A stretch of DNA of 64,000 bases from Gammaproteobacteria bacterium (GTDB taxonomy: Bacteria > Pseudomonadota > Gammaproteobacteria > Arenicellales > Poriferihabitantaceae), in assembly GCA_022822625.1 (NCBI GenBank), contig JAJEAV010000026.1, positions 1 to 64,000 of the forward strand, in the 5' to 3' direction. Positions 2 through 19,299 of this stretch are shown here, one piece after another. The notes beneath the pieces are model-generated. The model had not been told where the DNA came from. It ran no database searches and saw only the letters and a list, made by a program, of their open reading frames with translations. The translations under genes and the position numbers were made by a program. Numbering within the stretch: the stretch's first letter is position 1; the number at the start of each line of letters is the position of its first letter.

Positions 2-400
2 TTTCGAAGAAAATCCTCGAGTCCCAAACTCAATGTACTAAACACGGCACTTATGACGGTCGAAAGCGGATACAGCTTCGATGAGGCTATGGCGGACCGA
101 ACCTACCGGGGGAGACTTGTTGAAAGTGCAGTTGGTGCCCATTTGTTTAACACGGGCATGTCGGATTGCCGCCTTCACTACTGGCGAAACGAAAACCATG
201 AAGTAGATTTTGTTCTGTCAAGAGGTCCGAAAACAATTGCCTTTGAAGTGAAAAGTGGCCCATACAGACGACAAAAAATGTCTGGGCTTGAATTGTTTGC
301 AAGGGAATTCAATATTAGTCGGTCCATTGTTGTCGGAGATGGTGGAGAAATCCCCTTGTCGGAATTTCTTTCCATGCCGGTGGACGAATGGGTTAATTGA
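2..400 (+). CDS. C-terminal part of a DUF4143-family AAA ATPase (5' end lies outside the window)
   Basis: Frame is open from base 2 upstream of the listed ATG (FRRKSSSPKLNVLNTALMTVES...), followed by HEVDFVLSRGPKTIAFEVKSG, typical of the DUF4143 C-terminal domain. Confidence 0.75.
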   Translation, partial: FRRKSSSPKLNVLNTALMTVESGYSFDEAMADRTYRGRLVESAVGAHLFNTGMSDCRLHYWRNENHEVDFVLSRGPKTIAFEVKSGPYRRQKMSGLELFAREFNISRSIVVGDGGEIPLSEFLSMPVDEWVN

Positions 401-3400
401 TCATGGAAACCTATATCTCCAGAAAAGTTCGGGAAATCAGGTATTCTGATGCACGCATGGACACGGATACAAAATCATATCCCATTGAAAATTTCCGGTC
501 CGTAGCTGCTTATGTATTACTGGGTCCACCGGGTGCTGGAAAAAGCACAACTTTTAATGAGGAGGCGCGTAACCAGTCAGGAACGTATGTGACTGCGCGC
601 AATTTTAGCACCTTCACTGATAAGCCAGAGTGGCATAACACTACTTTGTTCATTGACGGGCTTGATGAAATCAGGGCTGGCCAAGATGATAGACAAACCT
701 CGTTTGACAAGATTCGAAATACGCTCTACGGGCTTGGGTGTCCTAGTTTTCGACTGTCCTGTCGAGAAGCTGATTGGTTCGGTGCGTACGATACCGATCA
801 GCTAAAGGATGTGTCATCAGACAGGAGTATCAGGATATTACGCCTTGAGCCTTTGTCGGACAAAGATGTCTGCGACATACTACGGATTAACCTTCGTATC
901 CCAGACCCCGAATGTTTCATTACAGAGGCTCAGGAAAGAGGAGTTCAGGGTTTGCTAACCAACCCCCAAAGTCTTGAAATGCTTGCTCGTGCAGTGAATA
1001 ACGGTGACGGTTGGCCAAAAACAAAAACCGAGGCTTTTACTATGGCCTGTGAAACCCTCCTGAAAGAGCACAATAATAGCCATAGTTCAGTGACTAAAAA
1101 CAAATTCAGCATGCCTGATCTGATGAAGGCTAGCGGCAGGATTTGTGCAGTGCAGTTGTTAACTGGAGCTTCTGGATTTAGTATTACGAATACCGAAGAT
1201 GGCAATAACGTTGTCTCGCTAGAACAACTTTCGGAGCATGGAAGTGGTGTATACCTTCGATGCCTGCAGTCCAAGTTGTTTGAGTCAATGATCGATGGTC
1301 AGATGACTCCTGTTCACCGGCTGATTGCAGAGTTTCTGGCGGCGGGGTATTTGGCTAATCTTGTCGATAAAGACGGTCTACCCATTGCACGTTTCCTCTC
1401 ACTCGTTACCGGGCATGATGGTGTCGTAGTTTCAGAATTGCGCGGATTGGTTGCATGGCTTGGGGCACAATCCCAGATTGCCAGGTCGGAAATCATTCAT
1501 AGGGACCCTATCGGGACAGTTCTATATGGAGATGCTAGAAGATTCTCATTTGATGAGAAATACTTACTACTCAAACGGCTCAAAATTGAAGTTGACAGCA
1601 ATTGTGGACCACTTCCCTGGGATGTTCTGGTATCAAGTCTTGGTGAACTGATAACATCAGAAATAGCAGGTATTGTACAGAAAGCATTGGAAGAACCATC
1701 AAGGGAAGAGTCGGCACAGTCCTTTGCTGTCATTCTGCTCAAAGCGCTCAATAACGCTACTGTCCTTAAAGGTTTTAACGAACTGCTAATGCAAATAGTT
1801 CGCGATAAAACAAGATGGACTAGTGTAAGGAGAAGAGCACTTGAAGTACTTATACGTTACCGGGAGTTAGATAACGGGGGTTTCGATGAATTTATAACCT
1901 TGGTTGAAGATATCCATAATGGGAAGGTCCAAGACCACGAACACGACTTGACATTGTATCTGCTAGATGTGCTTTATCCCAACGTAATACCTGAATCAAA
2001 GATTATTGAATATCTCAAGATTCCAGTAACCTGGCACAATGACTTTGAGCATGAATATTTTTGGACCGTTCTTCTGCCAAGGAAATCTTCTCCGGAGCAG
2101 CTGGCGGTAATTTTGGATCAATTAGTAGACCGTTCTAATCAATTGTTAGAAAATGATAACCATCAATATTCGGCTTCTTTTCTTTATAAATTTGCAGGGG
2201 CTCTGCTAGCTGAATTCCTCAAAAGAGGGCATGAGTGTCAGGAATTAAATCGGCTGTTCGACTGGTTGGGGCTGATAATGGATGAAGATTGTCAGGATGA
2301 CCACTATTGCGACCAAAATATATCCGTCATTCGGGAATGGCTCGAAAAGCATCCAGAAGAATGGAAATTTCTGCTGTTAAGAAGCATTGATCTCTGTGCC
2401 GACCAAACTCCCGATACAGAATATGGCGAATTTTTCGCTTGTATGTACAACGAGGTACGTAGCAGGCTCTTCGACAAGAAACCAGATGAGTACGGGGTTT
2501 GGTATCTTGATCAGGCGATCGTTGCGAGAGATTGGAAGATTTCTCATTGGCTATTGGAGGAGGTGGCTGAGTGCTTACATTATGAATGGGGAAATCAAGA
2601 ATTATCGAACGAAATTATATTAGGCAGGCTTGCAGGTTTTCCTGATAAAAGGGATTTTTTCGCCAAATATCTCAAGAAAATGCAGGGTCATACGGAGTCT
2701 CGGGACAGGAAAATCCCGCTAAAAGAATCACAGGCGCGTACCAAGTATTCTGACTGGCATGATGATGTAAAGCCATTTCAAGATAAATTTCGTGAAAATA
2801 AGGCATCTCCTATTCTTCTGCATCGGCTTGCTATAGCCTATTTCGGCGGATACTCCGGTGTTCGCGGAAGTAATTCTAAAGAGCGGTTGAGGTTTATTTT
2901 GCGCAACAATAATCCGTTGGTCGAGGACGTGTTGACCGGATTTCGCAAGGCAATCGAACGGAAAGATCTCCCGGCATACAAGGAAATCCTGCGTCTTCGT
3001 GTTGCGAATCGTACGCACCATCTCGCTTATCCGATCATGGCCGGGCTTGAGGAAATTTCTAGCCCGGAAGTATTGGATAAAATGCTGGCAAAAAAAAGAA
3101 TTATCAGACTGGTCTTGGCAATTCACTACTCTGTGCCTGTATGGTCGACAAAGCGCAATCCGGCTGACCGGTCACCATTTTGGTTCAATAGGCTCCTGTC
3201 TGCTCACCCTGCAATTGTTGCCGATGTGTTGACAGAATTTGTGGTCGGACAGCATAGAAATCGTAAAACGGCCTCGCCCCTGTATGATTTGGCAAATACC
3301 AAGGAGTATGAGGAAGTGGCTCGTTTGGTCACGATGCCCATTTTGGAGAAATTTCCAGCCAACTGTACTTCTGAACAACTCTCGGACCTGAACTATTTAT

Positions 3401-4572
3401 TCGCATCGGCCAGTAAATTTTGCAACGGGCAGGCACTGTTATGCCTAGTAGAGAGAAGTTTGGCCAAAGATCGAATGAGTATTGCCCAGAGAATCCACTG
3501 GCTGGTTGCGGGATTATTTTTTTCACCTAGTGATTATGCTCCTAGACTAGAGTCCTATGTTTCCGGCAAGGAACGGCGGATTCGTTTTCTGGCAAAAGCA
3601 GTATCCGGGAGATTTGAGCTTTCCCAAACCATTCCCGATAATCAGAGAGTTGTCGTAGCAAGTTTACTTATCCGGTTACTTGGGACTTCATACAGGCCAG
3701 TTTTGCTTGATAACGATTCAAAAGGGGAAGATGAAGGCAATTTTTTCACGCCCGAGATGTTTACAAGTACAAGGCATCAGACCAGCATATACATAGAGCA
3801 GATGGCAAAAATGCCATCATCAGAGGCTACTAGTTCAATCCAGGAACTGCTATGCAATGAGAAATTGCGGCCATGGAAGTCTCACCTTGAAAGAGCTGCT
3901 TATCATCAAAAGGAAGTTCGGCGAGAAGATGAATTCCGTTATTACAGCTTGCAACAAGTACTTGATACTCTCGACAAGGGGGATCCTGCTAATGCAACTG
4001 ATTTGGCTGTCCTCACATACGAGAAACTTATGGAAATCAAAAGAGAGAGTCGTTGTGCTAATACATCTGATTGGCGTCTGTATTGGAATGTAGACAGTTA
4101 TAACCGTCCAGAGAACCCGATGCCTGAAAATGCTTGTCGTAACTTGTTGGCTTCAAAGCTAAGAGACAAATTGAAGATGCATGGAATTGGTGTTGAAAAA
4201 GAACGTTCCCATGTGGACGATAATAGGAGTGATATCAGTGTTATTTATCAAGGTTTTAATGTTCCAATTGAAGTGAAGAAAAGTTCTAGTTCTGATTTGT
4301 GGAGGGCAATAGAGACTCAATTAACACCAAAATACTCGATAGACCCTGGGTCTGGAGGTAATGGAATCTATCTTGTGTTCTGGTTTGGCAGGACTGAACA
4401 ATGTCGTGTGAAACCCCCACCTTCAGGGAAGACCCCACCAACTAGTGCAAGGGAACTTGAAGATAGGTTGAAGGAGATGCTGCCGGATGACAGGATGTAT
4501 AATATTCACATATGTGTTGTTGATGTATCGAAGCCGGATGAAGGTGTGGAGAGGGCAGGGGGCAATGCTTGA
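397..4572 (+). CDS. Large STAND/NACHT-like P-loop NTPase with C-terminal PD-(D/E)XK-like domain; putative defence protein
   Basis: Walker A GPPGAGKST, Walker B TLFIDGLDE, sensor-like FRLSCREADW, long helical middle, C-terminal SDISVIYQGFNVPIEVKKSSSSDLWRAIETQL (D...ExK). Start is TTG 397 or ATG 403. Confidence 0.7.
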   Translation: MIMETYISRKVREIRYSDARMDTDTKSYPIENFRSVAAYVLLGPPGAGKSTTFNEEARNQSGTYVTARNFSTFTDKPEWHNTTLFIDGLDEIRAGQDDRQTSFDKIRNTLYGLGCPSFRLSCREADWFGAYDTDQLKDVSSDRSIRILRLEPLSDKDVCDILRINLRIPDPECFITEAQERGVQGLLTNPQSLEMLARAVNNGDGWPKTKTEAFTMACETLLKEHNNSHSSVTKNKFSMPDLMKASGRICAVQLLTGASGFSITNTEDGNNVVSLEQLSEHGSGVYLRCLQSKLFESMIDGQMTPVHRLIAEFLAAGYLANLVDKDGLPIARFLSLVTGHDGVVVSELRGLVAWLGAQSQIARSEIIHRDPIGTVLYGDARRFSFDEKYLLLKRLKIEVDSNCGPLPWDVLVSSLGELITSEIAGIVQKALEEPSREESAQSFAVILLKALNNATVLKGFNELLMQIVRDKTRWTSVRRRALEVLIRYRELDNGGFDEFITLVEDIHNGKVQDHEHDLTLYLLDVLYPNVIPESKIIEYLKIPVTWHNDFEHEYFWTVLLPRKSSPEQLAVILDQLVDRSNQLLENDNHQYSASFLYKFAGALLAEFLKRGHECQELNRLFDWLGLIMDEDCQDDHYCDQNISVIREWLEKHPEEWKFLLLRSIDLCADQTPDTEYGEFFACMYNEVRSRLFDKKPDEYGVWYLDQAIVARDWKISHWLLEEVAECLHYEWGNQELSNEIILGRLAGFPDKRDFFAKYLKKMQGHTESRDRKIPLKESQARTKYSDWHDDVKPFQDKFRENKASPILLHRLAIAYFGGYSGVRGSNSKERLRFILRNNNPLVEDVLTGFRKAIERKDLPAYKEILRLRVANRTHHLAYPIMAGLEEISSPEVLDKMLAKKRIIRLVLAIHYSVPVWSTKRNPADRSPFWFNRLLSAHPAIVADVLTEFVVGQHRNRKTASPLYDLANTKEYEEVARLVTMPILEKFPANCTSEQLSDLNYLFASASKFCNGQALLCLVERSLAKDRMSIAQRIHWLVAGLFFSPSDYAPRLESYVSGKERRIRFLAKAVSGRFELSQTIPDNQRVVVASLLIRLLGTSYRPVLLDNDSKGEDEGNFFTPEMFTSTRHQTSIYIEQMAKMPSSEATSSIQELLCNEKLRPWKSHLERAAYHQKEVRREDEFRYYSLQQVLDTLDKGDPANATDLAVLTYEKLMEIKRESRCANTSDWRLYWNVDSYNRPENPMPENACRNLLASKLRDKLKMHGIGVEKERSHVDDNRSDISVIYQGFNVPIEVKKSSSSDLWRAIETQLTPKYSIDPGSGGNGIYLVFWFGRTEQCRVKPPPSGKTPPTSARELEDRLKEMLPDDRMYNIHICVVDVSKPDEGVERAGGNA

Positions 4573-4835: not shown

Positions 4836-6890
4836 TTATGATGGGCTGGACTTGATATAAGTGACTTCAAATGCTTTGCTTGAACGGTGTTGCTGAAGAC
4901 GATTGGAAAAAGCAAAGGAATTATTCATTTCATAGGGTTGAAAAATATCCAAACCCCGGTCCAACGATATTTTCCAACCATGATCAGTCGTAATATGACG
5001 AGCATGGATTGATCTTGAGCTATCGAACTCCCAGGTGAATCGAATACCAGCTGAATAGCTTGATTCCTTTATTTTCTCAAAATTTTCCATTTGTTGATCG
5101 CACCTAACTTCATCTTCTGTTGTCACAAGATGTACAGACACTTCTTGGTCCAGACTCTTATGCTTGACAACAGTCTCCAACAGTTCCATCAGATTGCGGA
5201 TTTGATAGAAAAGGCGTATGTAGGGATCGGTAACCTTTATTTCAGTCGCTCCGCTCAAATAAGGGCCAAATAGACTGTCAAACGAGATACCTTTCTGATT
5301 TTCCTGATAGGCAAGATGCTGTTCCTCAAGAACGGGTTTGGTTGAAGATGATTTTGATTCGTTTTGAACTGGGTGTGTTTGCGTGGCGTCTGAAAAATCA
5401 CTGCTATCGCTATCCTTGACCACTTTATAGTAATAACTGGAATATTCACCTTCTTCCAGAGTGGTTACAGGTTCCACGCTCCGATCAGCCCTCTGATAAC
5501 TAAATTGAACGGATTCATATGTGGGGTCAATCCTCATTAACTGGTCCTTGACTCGCTTTCGTCCTTCGATAGAAAATCGAATTAACTGCTCAATCTCTTT
5601 GTCGGATGCATCGACATTTGGAAAAAGAATTTTCATCAGGCCAGAAAAGGTTTTATTGATTCCGTCTCGATCTCTAGTTGAAATATCAGGAGACAGCGCG
5701 AAACAGTCCTTGTAGCGGTCTGAGTAGTCATGGTTCCGTAAGGAACGAAGAATTTCAGCAAGGTAATCCACCACGAAGCCATAGCCATCAGAAAACATCT
5801 CTCCCCGAATGATATCGACTTCCCAGCCAGGAATATAGAAATGAATCCGATCAAGAAATGCAGAGTCGTAGAAGTTGCTCGGTAACTCGCAAAATAAATC
5901 TGAATGTTTCAGCATATATGGCACGGTATGTTGGGTATTTCCCACGAAAACCATTGAGGCATCGGCTCCCAGTGTTTCAACTCCACGTGAAAAAGACTTG
6001 TTGGCCATATAGTTTTTCATGATGTCAACCAAAGCCTTGTCTACTCGTTTTTGCCTGCCGGCAAATTCATCAAAGCCGATACAGTCCCAGTAGCCAACCA
6101 GGCCGATTTTTCCGGAGGAGTTATTTACGAATAGTTTGGGCACCGTTACCTCTCCACCCGATATCAAAATACCGTGAGGAGAAAATTCCGAGTAGATATG
6201 AGATTTTCCAGTTCCCTTGGGACCTAGTTCAATTAGATTGTAGTTACGCTCGCAATAAGGAATCAAGCGGACAAGCTGGGTCAGTTTGCTACGATATCCA
6301 AACATCTCAGGGTTAAGCCCTATGCTCTGTATCAGCAAGTCAACCCATTCTTCGGTAGAGAATTGCTTGCGGGCTTCTACATAACCATCAAAATCAAAAT
6401 GAGACATTTGAATTGGCTTTAGGCTACCCAAAATCCAGGGGCTGGAGCTTTTATCTTCGCAAAACTCGTACTCCAGATCAGCTATGCACCATACTCCACC
6501 AACCAAAAGCTTAGGATGTTTTTTTACGGTTCCTGAGTCAATCAGAATATTCTTGATCCCCAGGTTTGAAAATTCTGCTTCGTAGACATCTTTCTTGTCA
6601 TTCAGGTCAACGCTTATTTTATCGATGACTTTGTAGCGTCCTTTCTCTTTAATGTTTGAACGAACTAGGCCCGCTTCGTTGCGGTGTACATAATGCTTGC
6701 GCAGAATATCCTTGACTGTCTGGATACCTGACTGAATGGACGGTTCATCACTCGTGGCACAATATTGTCCTAAAAGGTATTCAAGTACATATGTGGGAAC
6801 GATGGCGTTTCCCTTGACCGTCTTGACGAGATCTTTGCGAACAACAAGCCCTGGGAAATGGATATTAATTTTCAGGTCAAGATCATCCAT
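4836..6890 (-). CDS. brxL: BREX protein BrxL (AAA+ Lon-like ATPase) with C-terminal MIT_C-like domain
   Basis: ELGPKGTGKSHIYSEFSPHGILISGGEVTVPKLFVNN...GYWDCIGFDEFAG; position at the end of the BREX operon; C-terminus GATEIKVTDPYIRLFYQIRNLMELLE...HARHITTDHGWKISLDRGLDIFQ. Confidence 0.92.
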   Translation of the reverse strand: MDDLDLKINIHFPGLVVRKDLVKTVKGNAIVPTYVLEYLLGQYCATSDEPSIQSGIQTVKDILRKHYVHRNEAGLVRSNIKEKGRYKVIDKISVDLNDKKDVYEAEFSNLGIKNILIDSGTVKKHPKLLVGGVWCIADLEYEFCEDKSSSPWILGSLKPIQMSHFDFDGYVEARKQFSTEEWVDLLIQSIGLNPEMFGYRSKLTQLVRLIPYCERNYNLIELGPKGTGKSHIYSEFSPHGILISGGEVTVPKLFVNNSSGKIGLVGYWDCIGFDEFAGRQKRVDKALVDIMKNYMANKSFSRGVETLGADASMVFVGNTQHTVPYMLKHSDLFCELPSNFYDSAFLDRIHFYIPGWEVDIIRGEMFSDGYGFVVDYLAEILRSLRNHDYSDRYKDCFALSPDISTRDRDGINKTFSGLMKILFPNVDASDKEIEQLIRFSIEGRKRVKDQLMRIDPTYESVQFSYQRADRSVEPVTTLEEGEYSSYYYKVVKDSDSSDFSDATQTHPVQNESKSSSTKPVLEEQHLAYQENQKGISFDSLFGPYLSGATEIKVTDPYIRLFYQIRNLMELLETVVKHKSLDQEVSVHLVTTEDEVRCDQQMENFEKIKESSYSAGIRFTWEFDSSRSIHARHITTDHGWKISLDRGLDIFQPYEMNNSFAFSNRLQQHRSSKAFEVTYIKSSPS

Positions 6891-6904
6891 TACTATCCTA
6901 TCCC

Positions 6905-9412
6905 TCAGAAATCGAAATCGGTAGTAAATGATCGACGCATACTATATCGAGCTGATTTGTATTCCTTGTAATGTGACGTGAAAGAGTGTTTTTCGCGAAG
7001 CCGCAGAATCACTTCTTGATTATTGACTTGATCAGCATCCCTTGTCAGCACAAAGCGTATCGGTAACTCTCTATCTCTAGGATGATCAGAAGCAAAATCA
7101 AAGGAAAGGACATGAAGGTCTGAAATGAGGTTGCCTGACTCGGTATAAATGCCTGCTTGTAGCTCACGTTGTTGCACTTTATCAGTAATCGGTTCGGCTT
7201 GGTACAGAATTACGGAAAGTTGTCCGGAGGTAATCACCGAACTGGCCCCCTTCAGTATATCCACCTCAACTTTTCTGACATCGCTCTGTCTCTTCTTGTT
7301 GACTTTAAGAACTGGTATTACTACTTCCTGGAGTGATGCACCGCCATGTACAAATCGGCTACCAGAACCTTTAAGGCGCAGACGATTGATTGATTTAGGA
7401 ATTTGAATTTCGATTTCACCAACCAGCCCAAGTTGTTCAGAAGTGAAGTGATGAAAGCTTTTCGATCGGGTTAAATCCTTGCCAAACACAAAACGGCGGT
7501 CTCGATAAAGTACTTCCTTGCCTGATGCGTCGACGCTCAAAAAATCACTTTCATCAAGTATTCGATGTTGATATATAAACCCATGATCTGCGGTAATGAG
7601 GATATTGCTGGCATTTGCTCCAGTTAGTCGGTTAATTAAATTATCAATATCGGATAAGGCTTCTTGCACTGCTTCAAAAGCCAAACCCTCTGAATGCAGT
7701 TTATCGCCCGTGTGGTCTATTCGATTGTGATAGATATAGACTACGTCGTTGTCTTTAAGCAATCCCCGGCTATCGTCACGGTTAAACTGCATGAAGTCCT
7801 CATATTTGATAGCTCGACTCCTATTGCCCACAGCTTCTTGCAATATCTTATTACGATTGACTGTACCTGCAGACTTTTTTCCGTTTACCAACACGGTTCC
7901 GGAATCATTATCGGTAATAGATAATTCGCCGTTGGGTAATAGCGATGCCATTCCAAGCTGGGTATAACTGGGCAACATCGAAAGCATTGGCTTTAATTCG
8001 GCACTGTATCGGTCTTTTTGTCGAATAATCGTAAGTAGTTCATCTCCGATTTCGTAACGCAGGGCATCGGAAATGATCACACAAACCTTGTTATTTTTGT
8101 GAAGGAATGGTTGAACCCAATGTTCGAAAAACTGGTCTTGCTTTATTATCGATTCGTCACCCCAGTTTTCAGCCCTATCAACGAATGATTGAAACTGATC
8201 GCCAATCTTTAACAAGAAATTATTGGTATAAAAATTTTCAATTTGTTCCATCAATCTTTCTGTAAGTGAGGCGTTTCCAGATCTGTGAACGTGATAAACA
8301 AATTTACGATAGAGTTGGTCCAGTCGATACCATGATTGGCAATATTGTTTGATGCCCTCAGCTAGACTGTTTGTGGTCAGATTTGTCTTGTGCAAGTTAT
8401 CGACAAATTGAGTAGCAAAATTAATCACCTCGTAAAGGTGCCGGAATTCACCATGCCAATGACTTTGTCGTCTCTGGCGAATCCAGTTAGACACATCATC
8501 ATGGGAAACTGTCTGTGACACTAGATTGTTTACTATCTCGGAGATTATTTTCTGGTCAATCAACCTAAAGTAATCTAGCTCCATTAACTCCCGAAAATCC
8601 CGTTTTTCTAGGTCCTGCTGAATACCAAGAACTTCAGCTGATTTGCCGGACAAGATTTCAAAACTGTCTTGAAAATTTCGACTGTCTTTCCAGTTCTTGA
8701 GAAAAAATAGAGCGTTATTAGTTAACTTCGATTTCTCCTGGATGCCTATGCCCATTGCGTAGCAGGACTTGAATAGTTCAATAGCAAAGTCCTGGATACC
8801 TGGTTCATCAGATTTATAGCCAAATTGACGATTTAGCTGGCTCCAGAGAAAATCATCCAAATTACACCGTTTGATCAATCTGATTTTCTCCTCGCTATCT
8901 TGAGACAACTCCTGTAGCAGGATTTCCATGATTTTGTCCAGACGAGAATCTCCTGAATCTACACAGACCGCCAGCATTTTCATACGGATTAGTTCAGGAG
9001 TGTCATCATGTGTGAGAATCTTCTTGAGAGATTCCCTTCGCTTAGCAGCTCTAAGCAGTTCCAGATGAGGCTTAATTACATCTGTAAATTCAACGCCCAG
9101 CTCTAATTCGGAAAGCCAGATGGATAACTGGTCTGCCCGGAATACTCCTTCAGCCAATTGCACATCCAGTAACCAGTTTTCCAAGTTTTCTGGTTCGGGT
9201 CCTTCGCGATAAAGCAGGAATTTTTGTTTCGGTTCTTTTTTCAGAATTCGGTACTTGATGCTGTATTCGTTGTTATCAATTTCCAGTTTTCCGACTTCAG
9301 GAAGATCAAGCATTTCAAATTCATTACGCAATTCTATATTGGAGTCGTACCAAAAGATAATGCGGTGCTGGCCGAAAAGACGGGTTAATGCCTGGGCAAT
9401 ACGGTTACTCAT
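6905..9412 (-). CDS. pglZ: BREX alkaline-phosphatase-superfamily protein PglZ
   Basis: 835 aa; N-terminal FGQHRIIFWYDSNIELRNEFE; VCVIISDALRYEIGDELL; ILITADHGFIYQHR. Overlaps the pglX stop by 4 nt. Confidence 0.93.
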   Translation of the reverse strand: MSNRIAQALTRLFGQHRIIFWYDSNIELRNEFEMLDLPEVGKLEIDNNEYSIKYRILKKEPKQKFLLYREGPEPENLENWLLDVQLAEGVFRADQLSIWLSELELGVEFTDVIKPHLELLRAAKRRESLKKILTHDDTPELIRMKMLAVCVDSGDSRLDKIMEILLQELSQDSEEKIRLIKRCNLDDFLWSQLNRQFGYKSDEPGIQDFAIELFKSCYAMGIGIQEKSKLTNNALFFLKNWKDSRNFQDSFEILSGKSAEVLGIQQDLEKRDFRELMELDYFRLIDQKIISEIVNNLVSQTVSHDDVSNWIRQRRQSHWHGEFRHLYEVINFATQFVDNLHKTNLTTNSLAEGIKQYCQSWYRLDQLYRKFVYHVHRSGNASLTERLMEQIENFYTNNFLLKIGDQFQSFVDRAENWGDESIIKQDQFFEHWVQPFLHKNNKVCVIISDALRYEIGDELLTIIRQKDRYSAELKPMLSMLPSYTQLGMASLLPNGELSITDNDSGTVLVNGKKSAGTVNRNKILQEAVGNRSRAIKYEDFMQFNRDDSRGLLKDNDVVYIYHNRIDHTGDKLHSEGLAFEAVQEALSDIDNLINRLTGANASNILITADHGFIYQHRILDESDFLSVDASGKEVLYRDRRFVFGKDLTRSKSFHHFTSEQLGLVGEIEIQIPKSINRLRLKGSGSRFVHGGASLQEVVIPVLKVNKKRQSDVRKVEVDILKGASSVITSGQLSVILYQAEPITDKVQQRELQAGIYTESGNLISDLHVLSFDFASDHPRDRELPIRFVLTRDADQVNNQEVILRLREKHSFTSHYKEYKSARYSMRRSFTTDFDF

Positions 9413-12400
9413 GCGAAAGTGTCCCGAATAACTTTTGTTGAACTCAATCCGGGAACTTTTTTCAAGGCTTTGCCAAATTTGGGGTAGTTAATCTTCACGC
9501 CATCGTCGAGGTCGATATTGACCTGACGAGTGGCAAGAGGAAAGAGCACTTCATCCTCGTATTCTTTTAACTCCAAAATGATCTTGTTGATTTTTTCGAT
9601 TTCCTTCAGGGCTTGGACCCTTTCGTTTTGATTACTACTAGTTCTGATGCTGATAGCCTCGTGCTGGTTTTTTTGAGATGCGAGCTTTGTTTGGAACTCA
9701 CGTAAATAGTCGTTCAGGATCACGCTGACGGTGTCGGGCTTATAGCGATGAAGGTAGACAAGAGCATTAAAGCTACCTCTAGAGCTTGAAAACATCCAGT
9801 AAATGGGTCGTTTCCTGTAGTACTTCACATGATCAGAATAAAACTCATTGAGAAAGTAAGTGCGCATGTTGAAATTTCTTCTGTCATTAATGTTCAACGC
9901 TTTTTCAACAAATCTCAGATTGTCTTCATAACTTTCCTTGCCAAACGTCACACGCAGAAACTTGTGGAAACGATCAGCAATGTCATCATGAAACCAGTTT
10001 CCGTCTAGCACGGGGATAACGTTGTTTTCATCTGCCATGAATGCAGGTTCAGGTACAAGTTTCAAATAGTCATCAATCGTTTTGCCTTGATCAGCGAGAA
10101 TCAGGCCAGGCTTGTCAAGCGCATAGCGACCAAACATGCAGCCTACTGCATAGGACACCAATTCACGCATAGTGTCGGCCAAAAGCAATTTTTCCAGGTC
10201 CTCTTCACTTCTGTCATCGCCATAACGGTAATGTGGGTTACAGGTCAGAGTAATTTCTCTAAGCGGGACATCCGGAGTCATGTCATTCTGCAACTCGTAA
10301 GCTTCAATAAATAGTTGATTACTTCCTTCTTCTAGTTCTTTCATATGCATAGACATCTTTTGCCAATGCGAACGAAGATTGAAATAAGTCGATCGGAGTG
10401 TCGTTTGGAGAAATTCATCATGAAGAAGAGGGAGAGTATTGAAATCCCAAGATATTTCATAAGAGTCCCAGTCTTTTCTAGCAATCTCGATAAGCGATTG
10501 TGATAATTCACTTATAGGTCCACGGCGATAAGAAATAGCTTCTTTCAATATCGGGAGAGAAGCCACGTTACCAACTTGAAAGTTTAGAGTTGGGTTGATG
10601 ATTTGTAAAAACCGATGAGTTTGCTTAGAGCAAAGATATGCGACGGTCCAAAAATGGTCTTGGACTGCCGGAAATACTGACGAACCACCTACATCAAATA
10701 TTGCCCCAGAGTCAGAATGTCTTACACCAAAGTAAGCGGAGCTAACAAAAGACCATGTTATAGAGGGTAGAAAGTAGAAATCGCAGTTCTGGCTACGTGA
10801 TCTTGCTTTTCCTCCGTTTTCTGTGCCAAATTCGCGGATTTCTTTTCCATCAAATTCCCAGTTTACCAAATATTCATTATTCCCGTACCATTTCCTGAAT
10901 CCGCCACCTTTGTTATAGGGAAACCATTTCTTTTTACTTAGCATGGCTTCACTGCGGTTTGCGAATCCAAAGCCACATTTATCTTGACCAATCTCAAACC
11001 AAAGTCGCAAAAACTGATCGTTATCAGCAGTTGCTAAGCCCTGTTTTACAGGCGAAATTTTCCCAAGTTGTGTAGCATCATGAAATATCTTTCGGATACG
11101 CCCAGTTGTCCAATATGCGATCGGGCTTCCCGGGATTCTCTGGAAATCCGAGCTAGAGGCTCGGTAGAACCAGCCGCAATTGGAGTTTTTGATTGCCTCG
11201 AGTGTCCTAGGACCTTGATTTTCAGACCCTCGAAAATCAGATAACCGTACATAGCTACCCCTAAACTCTGGATAATGTGAATTTCCCACAGTAAAAATAC
11301 AAATTGGTACTGTAGCGCCATCAAAACCAGAGTATTCCAATTGAACTAGAGATGTAATTGTTTTCTTACTGAGAAGTAGTTTTCTCAATTTTGTATGGGT
11401 AGAAATGAACATCCAAACAAATGGAGACATGAAACCTAACTGTCCTTTTTCTATCGTCAATTCTGTATTTCGAACAATGAATGAGGAAAAAAGATCAGAG
11501 CTACTATCCGAATAGTTGCTCTTTAACCACTGAGCCAAACGACCATTCATGTTCCTGCTTCCCATGTATGGTGGATTAGCTATTACCACATGGTATTTAT
11601 TACTGAGGTAGATTGACTGTCGCAAGACCTGAAGAACTTTTTCATGGGTTTTTTGGAATAACACTTCTCCTAGGACATCCTTTGACTCTAAAACATTAAG
11701 AACTTCTGCAGCATCGGTAATCGCTGGGCGGATCAGGGAACCAAAATTATCAGCTTCTTTAAATTGATGTAATGTGATTTGAAGAAAAGGAGAGAATAGT
11801 TCGCGACCGATAAAGTTCATATAGTCATCTAATTCATCTTGCTCAAAATGAATCGGCTCTAATACACAGATGTTGGGTTTAATGCCTTTGCCAAAAAGTT
11901 GGTGGTGCTTCCCACGAGCTTTCATTGTTAAGGCAAAGGCAGCTAATTCTCCAGCACGCTTATCAATCTCAATGCCATATAAATTATTCACGAGGATCTT
12001 TTCAGGAATATCTTGGGGCGAATATCCTTCCTCTTCATACATGGCATAAAGGAGGTCGAATGCATAAGTTAGCATGTGTCCGGAGCCGCATGCAGGATCG
12101 CAAACCCTGATTTCTTCAGGGCTACTAATACATAGATAATCTGTTTCCGGTTGGTCCGACTTTATGTAGTAGTCCATCCGCTCAATCAATCTTGAGTCAG
12201 GGTGATTCAACATCCATAGGCGGCCGAGCGAGTTTTCAACAAGATAACGAACGATCCAGTTCGGGGTAAACAACTGGGTAGCTGTAGGTATATTTTCGGG
12301 ATTGATTTTTTTGTTTTTCTTGAGATCGGCAAATACCTTGTCTTTTTTCTCCGAAATATAATACTGATAAAGCCAACCGATTACTTCGACATTCTGGCAA

Positions 12401-12970
12401 ACATCAGAGGTCATCGCCTCTCGGGTAAACGCAAGATATTGAGTTTCCTGAGAGCAGATCATCGGGAATGAGCAATTCAGTGTAATCATTGATACGCTGG
12501 AACAGAAAAGGCATTGCCTTGCTCCAATAGTTTGAAACGGCAAATAGAAGCATGTGATACGCCTCACTCTGCGGATTGTGACTTGGAATCTTGCCATTTA
12601 GTAGATCAAGGACCTTCTTTCGAATGACTTCATGGACATATTTTTCATCAATATGCCCTGTTTTGGCTACAGCCAAAATTTCAGGAAGGGATTCTCCTGT
12701 AGCAGGTGATACGGATCCTATGTGCGAATATCGATTCTCATCCATGAAGCGTAATGCACAGAAGCGATTGAACCATGTATAAGCCGCTCGCTCCACGACT
12801 TGGTCCACATCATAACGCTCAATTTGATTTTCAAGGCTTTTCACAGCCTTTGCATTTTCTCGTCTAGCTGGACTGTCTTTGTTCAATACAAGGTCAACTT
12901 TAGCGGAGATATCACCAATTAGTCTGTGTCGGGCGTATTGAGCGAACCTCTTTAATTTTGCGGTTTCCAA
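9409..12970 (-). pseudogene. pglX: BREX adenine-specific DNA methyltransferase PglX, split by an apparent 1-nt frameshift near 12436
   Basis: N-terminal ORF 12404-12970 (METAKLKRFAQYARHRLIGDI...DYTELLIPDDLLSGNSI) continues in the next frame as LAFTREAMTSDVCQNVEVIGWLYQYYISEKKDKVF...; methylase motifs VCDPACGSGHMLTYAFDLL and VVIANPPYMGSRNMNG. Span is 3562 nt = 3x1187+1. Confidence 0.9.
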
Positions 12971-12996
12971 CTTGCACTAAATATTTTTGGTAAGTT

Positions 12997-13527
12997 TTAT
13001 GTTGACAGATCAGGCAAGCGGGAGGCCGGCCATTTGGGGAAAAATTTATTCCAGGTTTCCAGATTGACAATTTGACAACTTTGAGCCAATGCTTTTATCC
13101 AACGTTGGGACACAAGCCCTACGGGAAGCTCATGTTCCAGCAGTCTTTCGATCCTTCGATTCACTGCATTGTCAAAATTGATCAGGCAAATATAATGAAT
13201 GGGCTTGTCTACCTTTTGTTCAGCATGCCTGTATAGATAAGAGTCTCGAAATTTTTGTTTGAGATAGTTCTTCAACCACGTGAAGTGTTCCTTTCTCTGT
13301 CTTATTTCGTTGATATTTGTAGCAGTATCCGAATTGTAACTTTCCGGATGGTCATAATTTTTCAGTTCAATATATACATAAGAGTCTACAAATTCGGCAA
13401 CAATATCCACGGCTTTCATTGGCGCTCCATGAAATGTTGGTTTATCCTTGTCCTTTTCATCAAAAACAAATGCTTCTATGGCATCCTCAAATCGTATTTC
13501 GATTCCGCCTGTTTCAACAATAATCAC
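12997..13527 (-). CDS. Small putative PD-(D/E)XK-fold nuclease embedded in the BREX operon
   Basis: 176 aa with AVDIVAEFVDSYVYIELKNY (D-x12-ExK pattern); 4-nt overlap with the upstream ATPase gene. Confidence 0.55.
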   Translation of the reverse strand: MIIVETGGIEIRFEDAIEAFVFDEKDKDKPTFHGAPMKAVDIVAEFVDSYVYIELKNYDHPESYNSDTATNINEIRQRKEHFTWLKNYLKQKFRDSYLYRHAEQKVDKPIHYICLINFDNAVNRRIERLLEHELPVGLVSQRWIKALAQSCQIVNLETWNKFFPKWPASRLPDLST

Positions 13528-14588
13528 TTGCCAAGACCTCCCATATCTTTTGCAATTTTAAGGCCAGTGATTTGCCCATAAGCTTTATCTATTGGATTGA
13601 TGTCAATCGGACTAGTTTCAATCGGAAGATAATTATCGGTTGAGACGACATTAATTTCGGAGGTTTGTGCATCCCGGAATAAATTGTGAAACCGTATATT
13701 ATCCCCCTTGTTTTTATCCATCATAACGTCAAACCAACTGATTAATGCATGGTCGTGAGTTGTCAGAACTATCTGTTGCCCAATTCGAGAAATCTCTAGC
13801 AAAATTTCAACCAAGGGTTTCATCAAGACCGGGTTTAGATTTAAATCTGGCTCATCCCAAAATAGGGTACCGCTGATGCCTGGGCTGATTGCACTGGTTT
13901 CAAGTAGTCGTGAGAGTATTCCGAGCTTGCGGAAACCCTCGGCAATTACATTGGCTGAATATTCGACATTATTCTTCATGAAGGTAACTCGACCACCGCC
14001 ATAAAAGATGAAATGTCCACCGCATATATTTTCAATCTCCTCCATTGCCCATTTTGATTTTTCATGAAGAGCTCCGGGGCGGGCTTTAGGAAGGTCTAGC
14101 AGAATGCTAATATCGTGATAAGTTTGATCAAAAGAAACTTCGAATTTTTCATATAGGCTATTAAATCCTTCCATGAAGGAGATTACTTCTTTAGTTGGTA
14201 TAAATACCGCATCAGTATTTTGCGGATTCTCACCATACTGATTTTCTACCGTCAATAGCTTTGAATTGACATTAAAGGATATTGCGGACTTTTGTCCGCT
14301 CAGCCAATGTATTAGCAAATAAGTTTCATCAACCGCACCTTGCCTACGAAGCTTCCAAACTTTCCCCCCAATCGGCAAAAATAGTTGAAGGAGCCTGGAG
14401 GTCAATAATTTCTGTACATCATCCCTATCTGCTTCAGGCTTGATCTTATTGTGAAGGGCATAGGCGGCTTTGAGTAGATGCGTTTTACCAGTACTGTTTT
14501 CTCCAATAATGATGTTGATATTCGGTGATAGGTCCAGCGTAAGTTTTCTGAAAGCCGTGAAATTTTTAAGTTCAAACTGTTTGATCAT
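13524..14588 (-). CDS. AAA_15/AAA_21-like (SMC/ABC-type) ATPase embedded in the BREX operon
   Basis: IKQFELKNFTAFRKLTLDLSPNINIIIGENSTGKTHLLKA (Walker A), GTLFWDEPDLNLNP (Walker B), VLTTHDHALI (H-loop). Confidence 0.85.
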   Translation of the reverse strand: MIKQFELKNFTAFRKLTLDLSPNINIIIGENSTGKTHLLKAAYALHNKIKPEADRDDVQKLLTSRLLQLFLPIGGKVWKLRRQGAVDETYLLIHWLSGQKSAISFNVNSKLLTVENQYGENPQNTDAVFIPTKEVISFMEGFNSLYEKFEVSFDQTYHDISILLDLPKARPGALHEKSKWAMEEIENICGGHFIFYGGGRVTFMKNNVEYSANVIAEGFRKLGILSRLLETSAISPGISGTLFWDEPDLNLNPVLMKPLVEILLEISRIGQQIVLTTHDHALISWFDVMMDKNKGDNIRFHNLFRDAQTSEINVVSTDNYLPIETSPIDINPIDKAYGQITGLKIAKDMGGLGK

Positions 14589-17500
14589 ATTTGAATCCTT
14601 TTGTTGTCGCGGATTTTATTCAGCAAGATTTCGCGTAAACGCCCCAGAAAGACATCTAAATCTTCTTCATTGGCTATCCATGCTCTATCAAAAGCAGAAT
14701 TTAAATTCACCGAGCTGAATGGAACATATTCATTATTTTCAATGGGTGAGCTTTGTTGATCTGTTGAGGTCAGAAGTGAAAGTAGTTTAGGATACGTTAA
14801 TTCCTCGAATTTTCGGGGCATATCACGAATAGCTGCAATTAAATTCTGATTTTCGATTTCTTCAATAGCTTGGCGAAAATATATCCTGATTTCAGTCTGT
14901 CGCTCATCATCCAGTTGATTGAATTCCTGCATACCACAGAGTTTGTTTTCAAGTCCAGCTACTTTCTGTGTCGCTTCCAATACTTCGTCGTTGATCTGGG
15001 TATCGATATTTTGCTTTAAGCGCCCAGTTATCTGTTTCAGACGTTGCATCCCATTTCCTTTAAAACAATCGGAGGCATTCAACAGGGATTGCAATTCTTC
15101 GACTTCATTACTTTCAATGTAGCTTAGGTTAGACCTTTGGACTTGAGCTATATTTTGGGCATCATCGAATATTACCTTCTGCGAACCGTTCATAAATTTA
15201 AGTATAGGGTCGATCACATCTTCCTTCATGGAAAGCAGGTCATTTTTTTGCTGGAATTCCTCCAAGTACCATGAATAGGGCTTGCCAACAATTTGTCTAA
15301 GGAGTTCGACTATTGGTTCAAGCGTGCATAGAAACGGATATTGAGATTTTTGATCTACATACTGATTTAGCTCATTCAGTTTTGCCTGAAACTTTTCCCC
15401 GGTTTGCCTTCCAAGGGATCTAGCTTCACTGGAATCAGGTTCGGTATCAAAAAAGCCCTGAAAAAAATCTTTAAGGGAGTGGACCTGGGAAGAGGAAAAC
15501 TCAATTTGTGGATCAAGCAAAACATTGCCGTGACCATGAGTATTGCGAAAAGCCTGTTCCAGTTTGTCATTTTCTTCCAGTAGATTGCCATCAATGCGCA
15601 CTTCAACTTTGCTACGCGCACATAGCATGGATAGCGTACAAAGTATCGCCGCATAGTGCCATCCGTATGGCCTTCTTTCAAATTTTTCCAATAAGAATTT
15701 CAGCGTGGTGCGTAGACCTTTGTCACGGTTACTTTGAATAGCCGTCAGCAATTCCGACTCGGTTTCTGTCAGTGATGTGGCATTGTTGCCAATCAACCCT
15801 GAATCGGATGATTGTAGATATTTGGTGATATCGTTTTCGGTATAGATAATGCCACGTAACATACCAAGATTTGTATAGGTGCTGGTTATCAGTTTCTGAA
15901 AGCCGTTGGTCACTCTGGTTTGCGCTTCTCCAGAACCAGGTTCAATGCGCTCACCCGCTACAAATATATTTGCACTACCAATTTGACTCTGAACATGAAT
16001 TTTCAGGTCATTATATCGTGAATGATTTTGTGATCTTTTCTGCTCCAGAATGCGTTCGGTCGTCTCTGCTTGTGTTGCTGAAATATTTTGCCGAACATAT
16101 TTTTCAGTTCGTTTGTATACTGATAGATCATATGCTAGCCTAGCATCAGGAGGCAGGACCACAAGCAAGTCATCAGGATGTTTCGCCGAAAGGTTAGCCA
16201 GCAATTTTTCGTTTCCAGAATCTTCGTGGAATGAGGTGATGATATTTATGCCAAGTTCATGATCTCGTCCATATTGCTGACTATCCAGTTTTCTGGAAAA
16301 TGGATAGTCGCATTTGCTTTTATCATGTCTAATTTTTGATTGCTTGATAATCTGCTGAAAAATAATTTCCTGCAGTTCATTACTGACTTCGGATTGTTCA
16401 ATTTGAGTATTTTTGATTTCCTGCTCTATATCCTTCTCTTCGTTAGTCAGGTATTCATAATGCTCACCATTTCGTTGAATGTAAGTTTGTTGTTCAAGCA
16501 GATTGAGACTTCCTTCAACATTCATACGGAGGGTTGAAATATCCTGATTGAAGTTGTCAATAACTAATACACATAAATTGCGAATAGTTGGCTTCAAGTC
16601 CTCTTTGACATACTTGATTAGAAGTAGTGTTTTCAATAACCGAATTGCTAGTTGATTATCGAGGTTCTTTTCAGATTGAATAATGGCACCTTGAATTTGT
16701 GACTTCAATGCGGAGCGAATTCCCTCAAACATTGAATCAAAAGCTGCAAGTTGACCAATTCCATGTTTCTCAATGTCAATCACTACTTTTTGAAACACGC
16801 TTAACATGGAGCGTTCACCTACCGAACTGTGCTGGCCCTCGAAAGCGTTGTGATCCGATAGAGCCTTGATGCAGGATTGGAAAAGATCAAACTGATAGGG
16901 TACAAACGGATAACTGCTTATAAAGTGATCTTGATCCTGAAAGTTACGATAAGATTTTGAACCATCGACAAAATTAAATAATGTCTTGAAGTTGTTGGAC
17001 TGCCCACAATATAAATCCGTTAGCAAGGTAATGGCTTCATCGGTTTTTACAAGCAGGCGTTTCTGGATTACTTCAGCGACATCGGCACTCGTTAGTTGCA
17101 TGCGATTTGAGAACCGGTCCTGAATTTTTGAAAAATCATTTGCTTGTTTTTTGTCTCTTTCCCCTATAACCTTTTCCATGTCTTCTTGGGCGGTTACAAA
17201 AATCCATGCGCGGCCCTTACATTTGGTGGCAAGACTCTCCGCTATCGTCTGCAGATTAGTCATCAATTTGATGTTGTCAGCTATATATTGACCCACTTCA
17301 TCGACAAAGAAGTTCAGTCGAAAATTAGACTGTTGTTGTTCGATATAGGCATTCACCTGGTTCGCAAAATCCTCGATTGAGACGCTGTATTGCTCTCTGT
17401 ATTTATCGATGATTCCGAAAGCCACGTTTTTATCATCTCCTGTTGTTTGAGAGTAGGCTTTGGCTATGTTATTCGCTTCAAATAGCGCTTGCTCACGACC

Positions 17501-18070
17501 CGTTGTCCAATCAATACCTGCCACTGATCGATAATTTGACTGAAACTGCTCAAAGAGACCTCGCTTATCGAGGTCACGCTCAAATTGTGCAATATGGCCT
17601 TGTTTCCCGTAATAGCCGCACATCTGGTCAAAAACCTTGACAAATACGGCCAGAAGGGCATCGACCTCGAATTTGCTGATAACGTCAGCCTTCTGGTCAA
17701 TATTAAAAAGTATGCTTTTGGACGGTATGTTGACCGCCTTTTGAATTTCTGCTAGTAGAAATTGATTTCCCCCAAGCTTTGGAATGAACAGGTCGAGAGC
17801 CCTGTCGTCATCGACCTGCCGGTTTTCCAGTAATAGTGCCAGCATCTTGAGCAAGTGGGATTTTCCAGATCCGAAGAATCCTGAAATCCAGACGCCATTG
17901 GCACCCTGGAAATTGTTATAGGAATTGAGGAAGGATTCAATACGATTTTCGATCTCATTGGTTAATATATATTCTTCGACCTCGATATGCAGACAGGTTT
18001 CATCGTCAGCTTTGATTACGCCTTCAATTGGGCGACCCACAGATTTATTGAAAATAGATTTAAGTTTCAT
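14585..18070 (-). CDS. brxC: BREX P-loop protein BrxC
   Basis: 1161 aa; MKLKSIFNKSVGRPIEGVIKADDE...GVWISGFFGSGKSHLLKMLALLLEN; follows brxB. Confidence 0.95.
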   Translation of the reverse strand: MKLKSIFNKSVGRPIEGVIKADDETCLHIEVEEYILTNEIENRIESFLNSYNNFQGANGVWISGFFGSGKSHLLKMLALLLENRQVDDDRALDLFIPKLGGNQFLLAEIQKAVNIPSKSILFNIDQKADVISKFEVDALLAVFVKVFDQMCGYYGKQGHIAQFERDLDKRGLFEQFQSNYRSVAGIDWTTGREQALFEANNIAKAYSQTTGDDKNVAFGIIDKYREQYSVSIEDFANQVNAYIEQQQSNFRLNFFVDEVGQYIADNIKLMTNLQTIAESLATKCKGRAWIFVTAQEDMEKVIGERDKKQANDFSKIQDRFSNRMQLTSADVAEVIQKRLLVKTDEAITLLTDLYCGQSNNFKTLFNFVDGSKSYRNFQDQDHFISSYPFVPYQFDLFQSCIKALSDHNAFEGQHSSVGERSMLSVFQKVVIDIEKHGIGQLAAFDSMFEGIRSALKSQIQGAIIQSEKNLDNQLAIRLLKTLLLIKYVKEDLKPTIRNLCVLVIDNFNQDISTLRMNVEGSLNLLEQQTYIQRNGEHYEYLTNEEKDIEQEIKNTQIEQSEVSNELQEIIFQQIIKQSKIRHDKSKCDYPFSRKLDSQQYGRDHELGINIITSFHEDSGNEKLLANLSAKHPDDLLVVLPPDARLAYDLSVYKRTEKYVRQNISATQAETTERILEQKRSQNHSRYNDLKIHVQSQIGSANIFVAGERIEPGSGEAQTRVTNGFQKLITSTYTNLGMLRGIIYTENDITKYLQSSDSGLIGNNATSLTETESELLTAIQSNRDKGLRTTLKFLLEKFERRPYGWHYAAILCTLSMLCARSKVEVRIDGNLLEENDKLEQAFRNTHGHGNVLLDPQIEFSSSQVHSLKDFFQGFFDTEPDSSEARSLGRQTGEKFQAKLNELNQYVDQKSQYPFLCTLEPIVELLRQIVGKPYSWYLEEFQQKNDLLSMKEDVIDPILKFMNGSQKVIFDDAQNIAQVQRSNLSYIESNEVEELQSLLNASDCFKGNGMQRLKQITGRLKQNIDTQINDEVLEATQKVAGLENKLCGMQEFNQLDDERQTEIRIYFRQAIEEIENQNLIAAIRDMPRKFEELTYPKLLSLLTSTDQQSSPIENNEYVPFSSVNLNSAFDRAWIANEEDLDVFLGRLREILLNKIRDNKRIQI

Positions 18071-18082
18071 TTCTTTCCTTCA

Positions 18083-18676
18083 CTACACTTCAAAGTGGAA
18101 GATATTGAATGCACGGTAGTACTTGTCATCCCGAAGTTCCCCAAAAAGTTCCAGTGATGTGCCTGAATCAGAATCATGTGTATATGAACCCGGGAAAAAC
18201 ATTATGGTAGGTTGTGTTTTAGCGGTGCTTTGGAGGTTGTTTAGAACGTTATGTGACCGAATGTATGGAAATACTTCACCAACACCGGTAATAAACAATA
18301 CATCAAATTCCTCGCTCGTTATTTTTGACGCAATTGCAGGTACAAGGTATTCTTCAGAATCCAATACTCCCTGCAGTAATTCCTTTAGATTATTTTTAGA
18401 GATGGAATGCTCTGACTCAATTATCTTGTTCAAGACATTGCGGTTGTCTAGAATTTCGATGGAAAGGTCATACAGATCAATTTCCAAAATTTGAACCCCC
18501 TTTTTTTCAAGTTGGTTAGTCAATTGTTGACGAAGTCGTATAATTTGATTGGCATCTTCTGGCTGGAATGGACAAATAAAAAATGGAACCTCATTACCGA
18601 TCCCTTGCCTAGTAAGAAAACGCTTGCTTGAGATTACCCTTACCAGGTGGTCAAGCATTTCTTTGTTTGGATTCAT
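18083..18676 (-). CDS. brxB: BREX protein BrxB (DUF1788)
   Basis: 197 aa; FFICPFQPEDANQIIRLRQQLTNQLEKKGVQILEIDLYDLSIEIL; FDVLFITGVGEVFPYIRSHNVLNNLQ. Confidence 0.92.
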   Translation of the reverse strand: MNPNKEMLDHLVRVISSKRFLTRQGIGNEVPFFICPFQPEDANQIIRLRQQLTNQLEKKGVQILEIDLYDLSIEILDNRNVLNKIIESEHSISKNNLKELLQGVLDSEEYLVPAIASKITSEEFDVLFITGVGEVFPYIRSHNVLNNLQSTAKTQPTIMFFPGSYTHDSDSGTSLELFGELRDDKYYRAFNIFHFEV

Positions 18677-19299
18677 CGTAATATATTTTTAATATCAGAC
18701 TCGCATACCGGAAAAAACATCATATCTTCAGGATTATTGTGATAAAGCAATTCCAGCAGTTTTCGGCTAAGTATTGGTGGCATGATGTGATTTTGTTTGT
18801 TTAAATATCCCAGTTCTCGTAGCATTTTAAATAAAACCCATCGCAACCTATTGCGGGTATTAATACTTAAAGTATCAAGTTCTGGACTCCATTCCGACTT
18901 TTTATTAAAAAAAGAATCAAAATCCTCATGTTGCAATCTTGATTTCAAGGTGAGGTGATATTCTCTCAAAACCTCAACAGCAAATTCTCCAATAAAGCGG
19001 TATCGACGACAAATAGCGACCCACAATAGATGTGCTTGTTCCTGATGCGAGCTACTTATCAAGAATTTAATTTCATCCATGTTCAGGACTTGCAATCGGG
19101 TTAAAACTTCCTGGCAGATGCGTATACACGCACTCTGCGTCCTGGTCTGCAATAAATTTTCGGCAATAACTTTCTTGCGAACTGCACGATAAGTGCCCAA
19201 ATCCAGATACAGAGCTGCAATACTAACCGACTCGTAGTGCAATAAACTGCCTGCTGTAAATGACATGCTGTATGCAAGAGAGTTTGAACCATTTTTCAT
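18673..19299 (-). CDS. brxA: BREX protein BrxA (DUF1819)
   Basis: 208 aa; YSMSFTAGSLLHYESVSIAALYLDLGTYRAVRKKVIAENLLQTRT; first gene of the BREX operon, 4-nt overlap with brxB. Confidence 0.9.
   Translation of the reverse strand: MKNGSNSLAYSMSFTAGSLLHYESVSIAALYLDLGTYRAVRKKVIAENLLQTRTQSACIRICQEVLTRLQVLNMDEIKFLISSSHQEQAHLLWVAICRRYRFIGEFAVEVLREYHLTLKSRLQHEDFDSFFNKKSEWSPELDTLSINTRNRLRWVLFKMLRELGYLNKQNHIMPPILSRKLLELLYHNNPEDMMFFPVCESDIKNILR

What the first reader, a model, noticed from the sequence alone, without database searches (positions are those of the whole stretch)
397..4572. STAND/NACHT-like NTPase with a C-terminal nuclease-like domain next to BREX
Seen: 1391 aa with an N-terminal P-loop (GPPGAGKST, TLFIDGLDE, FRLSCREADW), about 900 aa of probable helical repeats, and a C-terminal SDISVIYQGFNVPIEVKKSSSSDLWRAIETQL. 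There is no obvious N-terminal effector. Established: bacterial STAND/NACHT defence proteins (Avs, bNACHT) usually place the effector N-terminally and the sensor C-terminally. Inference: an inverted layout with the nuclease at the C-terminus would be unusual and may be an abortive-infection effector.
Basis: partly seen in the sequence, partly recalled or inferred. Interest (0 to 1): 0.7.

Follow-up and report, generated by a model that had tools for sequence, protein, structure and literature searches.

The report
NLR-like immune nuclease with ATPase partner
This is a bacterial relative of animal NLR immune receptors that carries a DNA-cutting domain at its tail end; it belongs to a family already named as anti-phage (EruA), but to a branch that nearly always comes with a second ATPase gene directly upstream, a pairing I found described nowhere.

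Summary
The 1391-aa ORF is real. Residues 1-640 fold like NLR NACHT receptors (best PDB matches NOD2, NLRC4, NLRP3), and residues 1240-1380 fold as a PD-(D/E)XK nuclease. Walker A/B residues and seven nuclease residues are (nearly) invariant in 93 divergent homologues. There is no N-terminal effector, so the 'inverted' layout is correct, but it is a family trait: NCBIfam already names the family EruA ('NACHT domain-containing antiphage protein'), and HyoA shares the layout. The window protein scores 861 bits against EruA's 1000-bit cut-off: EruA-like, not EruA proper.

This holds in 64 of 78 checkable loci across many phyla, including one natural fusion. In this genome the partner looks intact, split only by an assembly break (exact 141-bp contig overlap). 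BREX next door is incidental. I read it as a two-gene NLR-nuclease anti-phage module, probably acting by abortive DNA cleavage. Fold, conservation and linkage are computed; trigger, partner role and cell death are inferred.

The parts
397..4572 (+). EruA-like NLR-nuclease gene (1391 aa), whole
   Evidence: NCBIfam NF058535 EruA, 861 bits, E 2e-258, residues 20-1378 (cut-off 1000); ORF
397..1530 (+). NACHT/STAND NTPase and winged-helix region (about residues 1-378): Walker A G46/G48/K49, Walker B D87/D90/E91, R123, WHD-type H307 and E312
   Evidence: AF2 model of residues 1-640, pLDDT 88.1; best PDB matches NOD2 5irm E 2e-8, NLRC4 4kxf, NLRP3 8ri2; residues invariant in 93/93
1531..3813 (+). 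Helical region, putative sensor (about residues 379-1139)
   Evidence: All-helical in the model up to about residue 630; least conserved part of the protein; residues 640-1139 not modelled, sensor role inferred
4126..4530 (+). PD-(D/E)XK nuclease domain (E1244, E1269, D1279, E1292-x-K1294, Q1308, Y1313)
   Evidence: AF2 model of residues 1140-1391, pLDDT 90.6; Foldseek top hits Can2, Can1, PspGI, Cdn1, Hjc, McrC, EcoRV (each weak, E 0.002-0.1); conservation 91-93/93
2..400 (+). 3' end (132 aa) of the partner gene: AAA_14-DUF4143 ATPase (PADLOC PDC-S01), with D-x12-E-V-K motif; its 5' part lies on contig C21 of the same genome
   Evidence: DUF4143 E 9e-16; PDLC04791 E 4e-40; 81% identical to L031 partner P0002; rest at G000:C21:3-1031, exact 141-bp overlap of contig ends, in frame
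4836..19299 (-). Type-1-like BREX locus (BrxL, PglZ, PglX, two HEC-02-like genes, BrxC, BrxB, BrxA), convergent neighbour, not part of the module
   Evidence: PADLOC and Pfam; found beside only one other EruA-like locus, L031

Best explanation
It is the receptor-effector gene of a two-gene anti-phage module. The protein is an NLR-like switch: a NACHT NTPase holds it in an ADP-bound, closed state (invariant winged-helix H307 and E312, by analogy with NLRC4/NOD2). A phage product is sensed by the long, fast-evolving helical region, by the upstream AAA_14-DUF4143 ATPase, or by both together. Nucleotide exchange then drives oligomerisation, which brings the C-terminal PD-(D/E)XK nucleases together, and these cut DNA, stopping phage replication and probably killing or arresting the cell. 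The partner ATPase, whose gene overlaps by 4 nt, most likely acts as an assembly, sensor or gating subunit. Shown by computation: the two domain folds, invariant catalytic and switch residues, operon linkage, fusion, correlated divergence. Inferred: trigger, oligomerisation, DNA as substrate, cell death, partner role.
For: Full-length match to the EruA antiphage family. NLR fold with NOD2/NLRC4/NLRP3 as best matches. Nuclease fold with mostly PD-(D/E)XK neighbours and a confident model. Walker and nuclease residues conserved in 91-93 of 93 homologues. Partner directly upstream in 64 of 78 loci; commonest gap -4 nt (24 of 55); one natural fusion, L109, 1832 aa; Mantel r 0.69 against a shuffle maximum of 0.18; linked forms occupy one supported clade. 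Partner keeps Walker A/B and E346/D374/E387-V-K389 in at least 51 of 55, most in 53-55. Standalone EruA relatives lie beside Gabija, SIR2-HerA, PD-T7-4 and MTase genes (control), and one beside Ppl and Abi genes on a plasmid.
Against: No experiment. The source paper for EruA is not in the library, so its tested mechanism is unknown to me. Individual Foldseek hits for the nuclease are weak (no E below 0.001). Neighbours of the ATPase-linked clade include many housekeeping genes, so its defence role leans on family membership. The partner subfamily also occurs without EruA, and some members inside the clade lack the partner (L042, L046, L053, L067, L096). Loci were chosen by similarity, so 64/78 is not a population frequency.
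Confidence: 0.65

Rival explanations
1. The EruA-like protein is self-sufficient, as in the standalone EruA clade; the ATPase is only a hitch-hiking or modifying gene in one lineage.
For: Equivalog-level EruA members have no such ATPase within 1.5 kb nor, in 11 standalone loci, within about 8 kb; several members inside the linked clade lack it; the ATPase family also occurs alone.
Against: 64/78 linkage with overlapping reading frames, a natural fusion, correlated divergence and conserved catalytic residues in the partner.
Confidence: 0.3
2. The pair works like a toxin-antitoxin: the upstream ATPase restrains the nuclease, and phage interference with the ATPase frees it.
For: Gene order (small gene first, overlapping) and strict linkage in the clade.
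Against: Members of the clade without the ATPase should be lethal under a strict antitoxin; one natural fusion (L109); the partner has its own conserved P-loop and ExK motif.
Confidence: 0.15
3. The C-terminal domain is a catalytically silent nucleic-acid-binding sensor of PD-(D/E)XK fold, and the effector lies elsewhere.
For: STAND proteins usually sense with the C-terminus (PMC12169576); some PD-(D/E)XK domains are inactive (general knowledge).
Against: All catalytic positions stay conserved (91-93 of 93) at about 20% overall identity; no other effector candidate is seen in the protein (model of residues 1-640).
Confidence: 0.08
4. It is an accessory subunit of the neighbouring BREX system.
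For: 263 bp from brxL, and a similar arrangement in the closest relative L031.
Against: Convergent strands; BrxL and PglZ found beside no other of the surveyed loci; of 22 relatives' genomes only two hold a PglZ scoring like the BREX one.
Confidence: 0.03

Closest known systems
EruA (NCBIfam NF058535, NACHT domain-containing antiphage protein)
   Same: Full-length alignment (residues 20-1378 to profile 7-1318), same order NACHT - helical region - C-terminal nuclease, all key residues
   Different: About 18-21% identical to the above-cut-off members L002-L008; 861 bits, below the 1000-bit equivalog cut-off; separate clade; carries an upstream AAA_14-DUF4143 partner that those members lack
HyoA (NCBIfam NF058534)
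   Same: Same architecture with the same C-terminal D...ExK...QL...Y nuclease motif
   Different: Only about 165 bits to the window protein; used as outgroup in the tree
Bacterial NACHT proteins with N-terminal PD-(D/E)XK effector, e.g. bNACHT25 (PMC12169576), and Avs
   Same: NLR-like NTPase coupled to a DNase; Avs4 among the fold matches (rank 25)
   Different: Effector and sensor ends are swapped: there the nuclease is N-terminal and the sensor C-terminal (PMC12169576)
PDC-S01 (PADLOC candidate; AAA_14-DUF4143 ATPase)
   Same: The partner gene is a member: PDLC04791, E 2e-163 for P0002
   Different: Listed as a single-gene candidate without validated function (PMC12988326); here one subfamily is tied to an NLR-nuclease

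Membership tests
EruA equivalog (NF058535) | Score at or above the curated cut-off of 1000 bits | tested here: not met
   861.1 bits
EruA equivalog (NF058535) | Full-length colinear match including NACHT and C-terminal domain | tested here: met
   Residues 20-1378 to profile 7-1318/1318
EruA equivalog (NF058535) | Anti-phage activity | not testable with these tools
   Needs phage challenge; source paper not in the library
NACHT/STAND (NLR-like) NTPase | Walker A, Walker B with acidic cluster, winged-helix His | tested here: met
   G46/G48/K49, D87/D90/E91, H307 invariant in 93/93
NACHT/STAND (NLR-like) NTPase | NLR NACHT-WHD-HD fold | tested here: met
   Model pLDDT 88; NOD2 E 2e-8, NLRC4, NLRP3 best PDB matches. 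No Pfam NACHT hit
PD-(D/E)XK nuclease superfamily | Alpha-beta-beta-beta-alpha-beta core with D...(D/E)xK on the strands | tested here: met
   Helix about 1244-1262, strands about 1265-1267, 1280-1284 and 1287-1295, helix 1304-1315, strand 1323-1329, with D1279, E1292, K1294; mostly PD-(D/E)XK hits, each weak
PD-(D/E)XK nuclease superfamily | Metal-dependent DNA cleavage | not testable with these tools
   Needs biochemistry
Avs (AVAST) | N-terminal effector, C-terminal sensor | tested here: not met
   P-loop begins at residue 43; the effector candidate is C-terminal
BREX component | Conserved co-occurrence with the BREX operon | tested here: not met
   BrxL and PglZ beside 1 other locus; PglZ scoring like the BREX one in 2 of 22 relatives' genomes
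PDC-S01 (partner gene) | AAA_14 ATPase plus DUF4143 in one protein | tested here: met
   P0002: AAA_14 E 5e-19, DUF4143 E 2e-27; window fragment DUF4143 E 9e-16

The most novel reading that the evidence does not exclude
AAA_14-DUF4143 ATPases, a very common candidate defence family without known function (PDC-S01), include a subfamily that is a required sensor or assembly subunit of an NLR-nuclease, giving a two-gene bacterial 'inflammasome' in which the NLR carries its effector at the C-terminus and takes its trigger through a partner ATPase.
Probability: 0.35. Interest if true: 0.75.

Novelty: new variant of a known kind. Interest (0 to 1): 0.58.

Why it matters
It shows that the effector-last layout in bacterial NLR-like proteins is a widely spread and strictly conserved design and not a local oddity, and it offers a testable function for part of PDC-S01, reported as the fourth most common predicted defence in prokaryotes but unvalidated (PMC12988326). 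It makes concrete a question about bacterial NLRs: whether some take their signal through a dedicated partner protein encoded with them, as NLRC4 does through NAIPs.

Tried and rejected
Pfam and PDB sequence searches with the single protein found nothing for it. First genome-contig scan with the single sequence found no relative; the alignment did. Paper searches for EruA/HyoA as defence genes found no source paper; the 'EruA' of PMC12839154 is an unrelated SlyA-type regulator. E. coli collection: no match to the EruA relative L002. BREX as functional partner was considered and rejected. Recurrent third genes in the neighbourhood: no defence gene. Homology of the DUF4143 ExK domain to the EruA nuclease: only a 21-column motif match (hhalign, P 0.0017), so not claimed. 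My first homologue alignment was wrong because minus-strand loci had not been reverse-complemented; it was redone. The PADLOC 'LmuA' hit (E 0.0028) spans the nuclease motif and was not taken as membership.
Full report
1. The observation. The ORF at 397-4572 (+) exists as described, 1391 aa, and is far beyond chance: the longest open frame in 200 shuffles of the region is 185 codons. The quoted motifs are in place. The start is either TTG 397, which overlaps the upstream stop by 4 nt as in the closest relative L031, or ATG 403.

2. Family. Pfam gives nothing for this protein and phmmer finds no solved relative. NCBIfam gives a full-length match to NF058535, 'NACHT domain-containing antiphage protein EruA' (861 bits, E 2e-258, residues 20-1378) and a partial one to HyoA (165 bits). 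The score is under EruA's curated 1000-bit cut-off, so by NCBI's own rule it is a relative and not an EruA equivalog. The above-cut-off members L002-L008 are 18-21% identical to it; L009, also above the cut-off, is 30% identical and falls inside the window's larger clade. I could not find the paper behind the EruA and HyoA names.

3. Anatomy. AlphaFold2 on residues 1-640 with 48 sequences gave pLDDT 88; the best PDB matches are NOD2 (E 2e-8), NLRC4 and NLRP3, with Avs4 further down. Residues 1140-1391 with 63 sequences gave pLDDT 90.6 and the element order of a PD-(D/E)XK core, with D1279, E1292 and K1294 on the expected strands and Q1308 in the following helix. The Foldseek hits are each weak (0.002 to 0.1) but mostly PD-(D/E)XK enzymes: Can2, Can1, PspGI, Cdn1, Hjc, McrC, EcoRV, PaqCI. 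Across 93 homologues the P-loop, Walker B, R123, H307 and E312 are invariant, and E1244, E1269, D1279, E1292, K1294, Q1308 and Y1313 are kept in 91-93. HyoA-type proteins carry the same C-terminal motif. Nothing precedes the NACHT domain but about 40 residues. So the effector-last layout is real and is a family property. Residues 640-1139 were not modelled; that they are a sensor is inference from their position and low conservation.

4. What was missed: a partner gene. A scan with the alignment of ten homologues returned 80 loci from many phyla and 4 viral contigs. In 60 of 78 loci with upstream sequence the gene immediately upstream is an AAA_14-DUF4143 ATPase of about 420 aa; L054, L060 and L098 also have it in another reading arrangement and L109 is a natural fusion of the two (1832 aa), making 64 of 78. 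In 55 intact pairs the commonest gap is a 4-nt overlap (24), and most others lie within 30 nt. Pairwise distances of partner and EruA-like protein correlate (r 0.69, maximum of 2000 shuffles 0.18). Linked genes lie in one supported clade of the EruA-like tree, outside which (including L002-L008) the partner is absent; a few members inside the clade lack it. The partner keeps its Walker motifs and an E...D-x12-E-V-K motif. By PADLOC it is PDC-S01, PDLC04791, a candidate family without validated function (PMC12988326).

5. The partner in this genome. The window begins at a contig end. Bases 2-400 are the last 132 codons of the partner. Its first part lies at the end of contig C21; the two contig ends share 141 identical bases and read through in frame. 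The gene is therefore most likely intact and cut only by assembly. Beyond it on C21 lies the same kind of gene, with the same divergent orientation, as in L031.

6. Specificity of the partner. In 399 genomes of the phylum, PDLC04791 at E below 1e-60 occurs in 11; five lie beside an EruA-like gene (G000, G048, G088, G257, G312) and six have no EruA-like neighbour in the stretch fetched, although several of those contigs are short. In the ATPase tree the orphans that were included nest inside the linked group, with low support at several deep nodes, so I read this only as consistent with secondary loss.

7. Context. No third defence gene recurs. BrxL and PglZ are found beside only one other locus, the closest relative, so BREX is an incidental neighbour. 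Genes near 11 standalone EruA relatives match 122 PADLOC models (Gabija, SIR2-HerA, PD-T7-4, methyltransferase), while the same number of genes from other parts of the same genomes matches one. The nearest neighbours of the linked clade match 114 models (AriA, methyltransferases, mad3), but the models are redundant, the top families have only 2-3 members, and that set has no control from its own genomes; Pfam shows many housekeeping neighbours. I regard defence-island placement as shown for the standalone branch and only suggestive for this one. Plasmid relatives are mostly on conjugative plasmids, one beside Ppl and Abi genes.

8. Mechanism. My best reading is an NLR-type switch (NACHT, winged-helix histidine) whose activation clusters C-terminal PD-(D/E)XK nucleases, with a co-encoded ATPase that helps to sense, gate or assemble. 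Folds, residue conservation and linkage are computed results; trigger, oligomerisation, DNA target and cell death are inferred by analogy with NLRs and with bNACHT25, whose N-terminal DNase is activated on infection and degrades DNA (PMC12169576).

9. Novelty. The protein family is known and named. What appears new, within the library and databases I could search, is the ATPase-linked subtype. C-terminal effectors on STAND NTPases have been predicted before for another domain (GT4; PMC8195603). I file this as a new variant of a known kind.

Noticed in passing
window 9409-12597 and 12404-12970 (-): The BREX pglX reads as two ORFs in different frames that together align to the single 1175-aa PglX of L031: a frameshift near 12,435, so this BREX copy may be inactive (or the assembly is wrong there).
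   Followed up: partly
window 12997-14588 (-): Two genes matching PADLOC HEC-02B and HEC-02A (the latter an AAA_21/AAA_15 ATPase) sit inside the BREX operon between pglX and brxC; L031 has at least HEC-02B in the same place.
   Followed up: no
window 4836-6890 (-): BrxL carries a C-terminal phospholipase-D-like domain (MIT_C, E 4e-44), probably the HKD-nuclease variant of BrxL mentioned in PMC12839542.
   Followed up: no
window 19727-20884 (-) and contigs C13, C14, C17, C26, C32, C36 and others of G000: The genome holds about a dozen further matches to the DUF4143 ATPase, one of them upstream of brxA in the window.
   Followed up: no
L109:8675-14173: Natural fusion of the partner ATPase and the EruA-like protein into one 1832-aa ORF.
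   Followed up: yes
L114 and L111 (IMG/VR contigs): EruA-like genes on contigs classed as viral, L114 with its ATPase partner; possible carriage by prophages, or host DNA misclassified.
   Followed up: no
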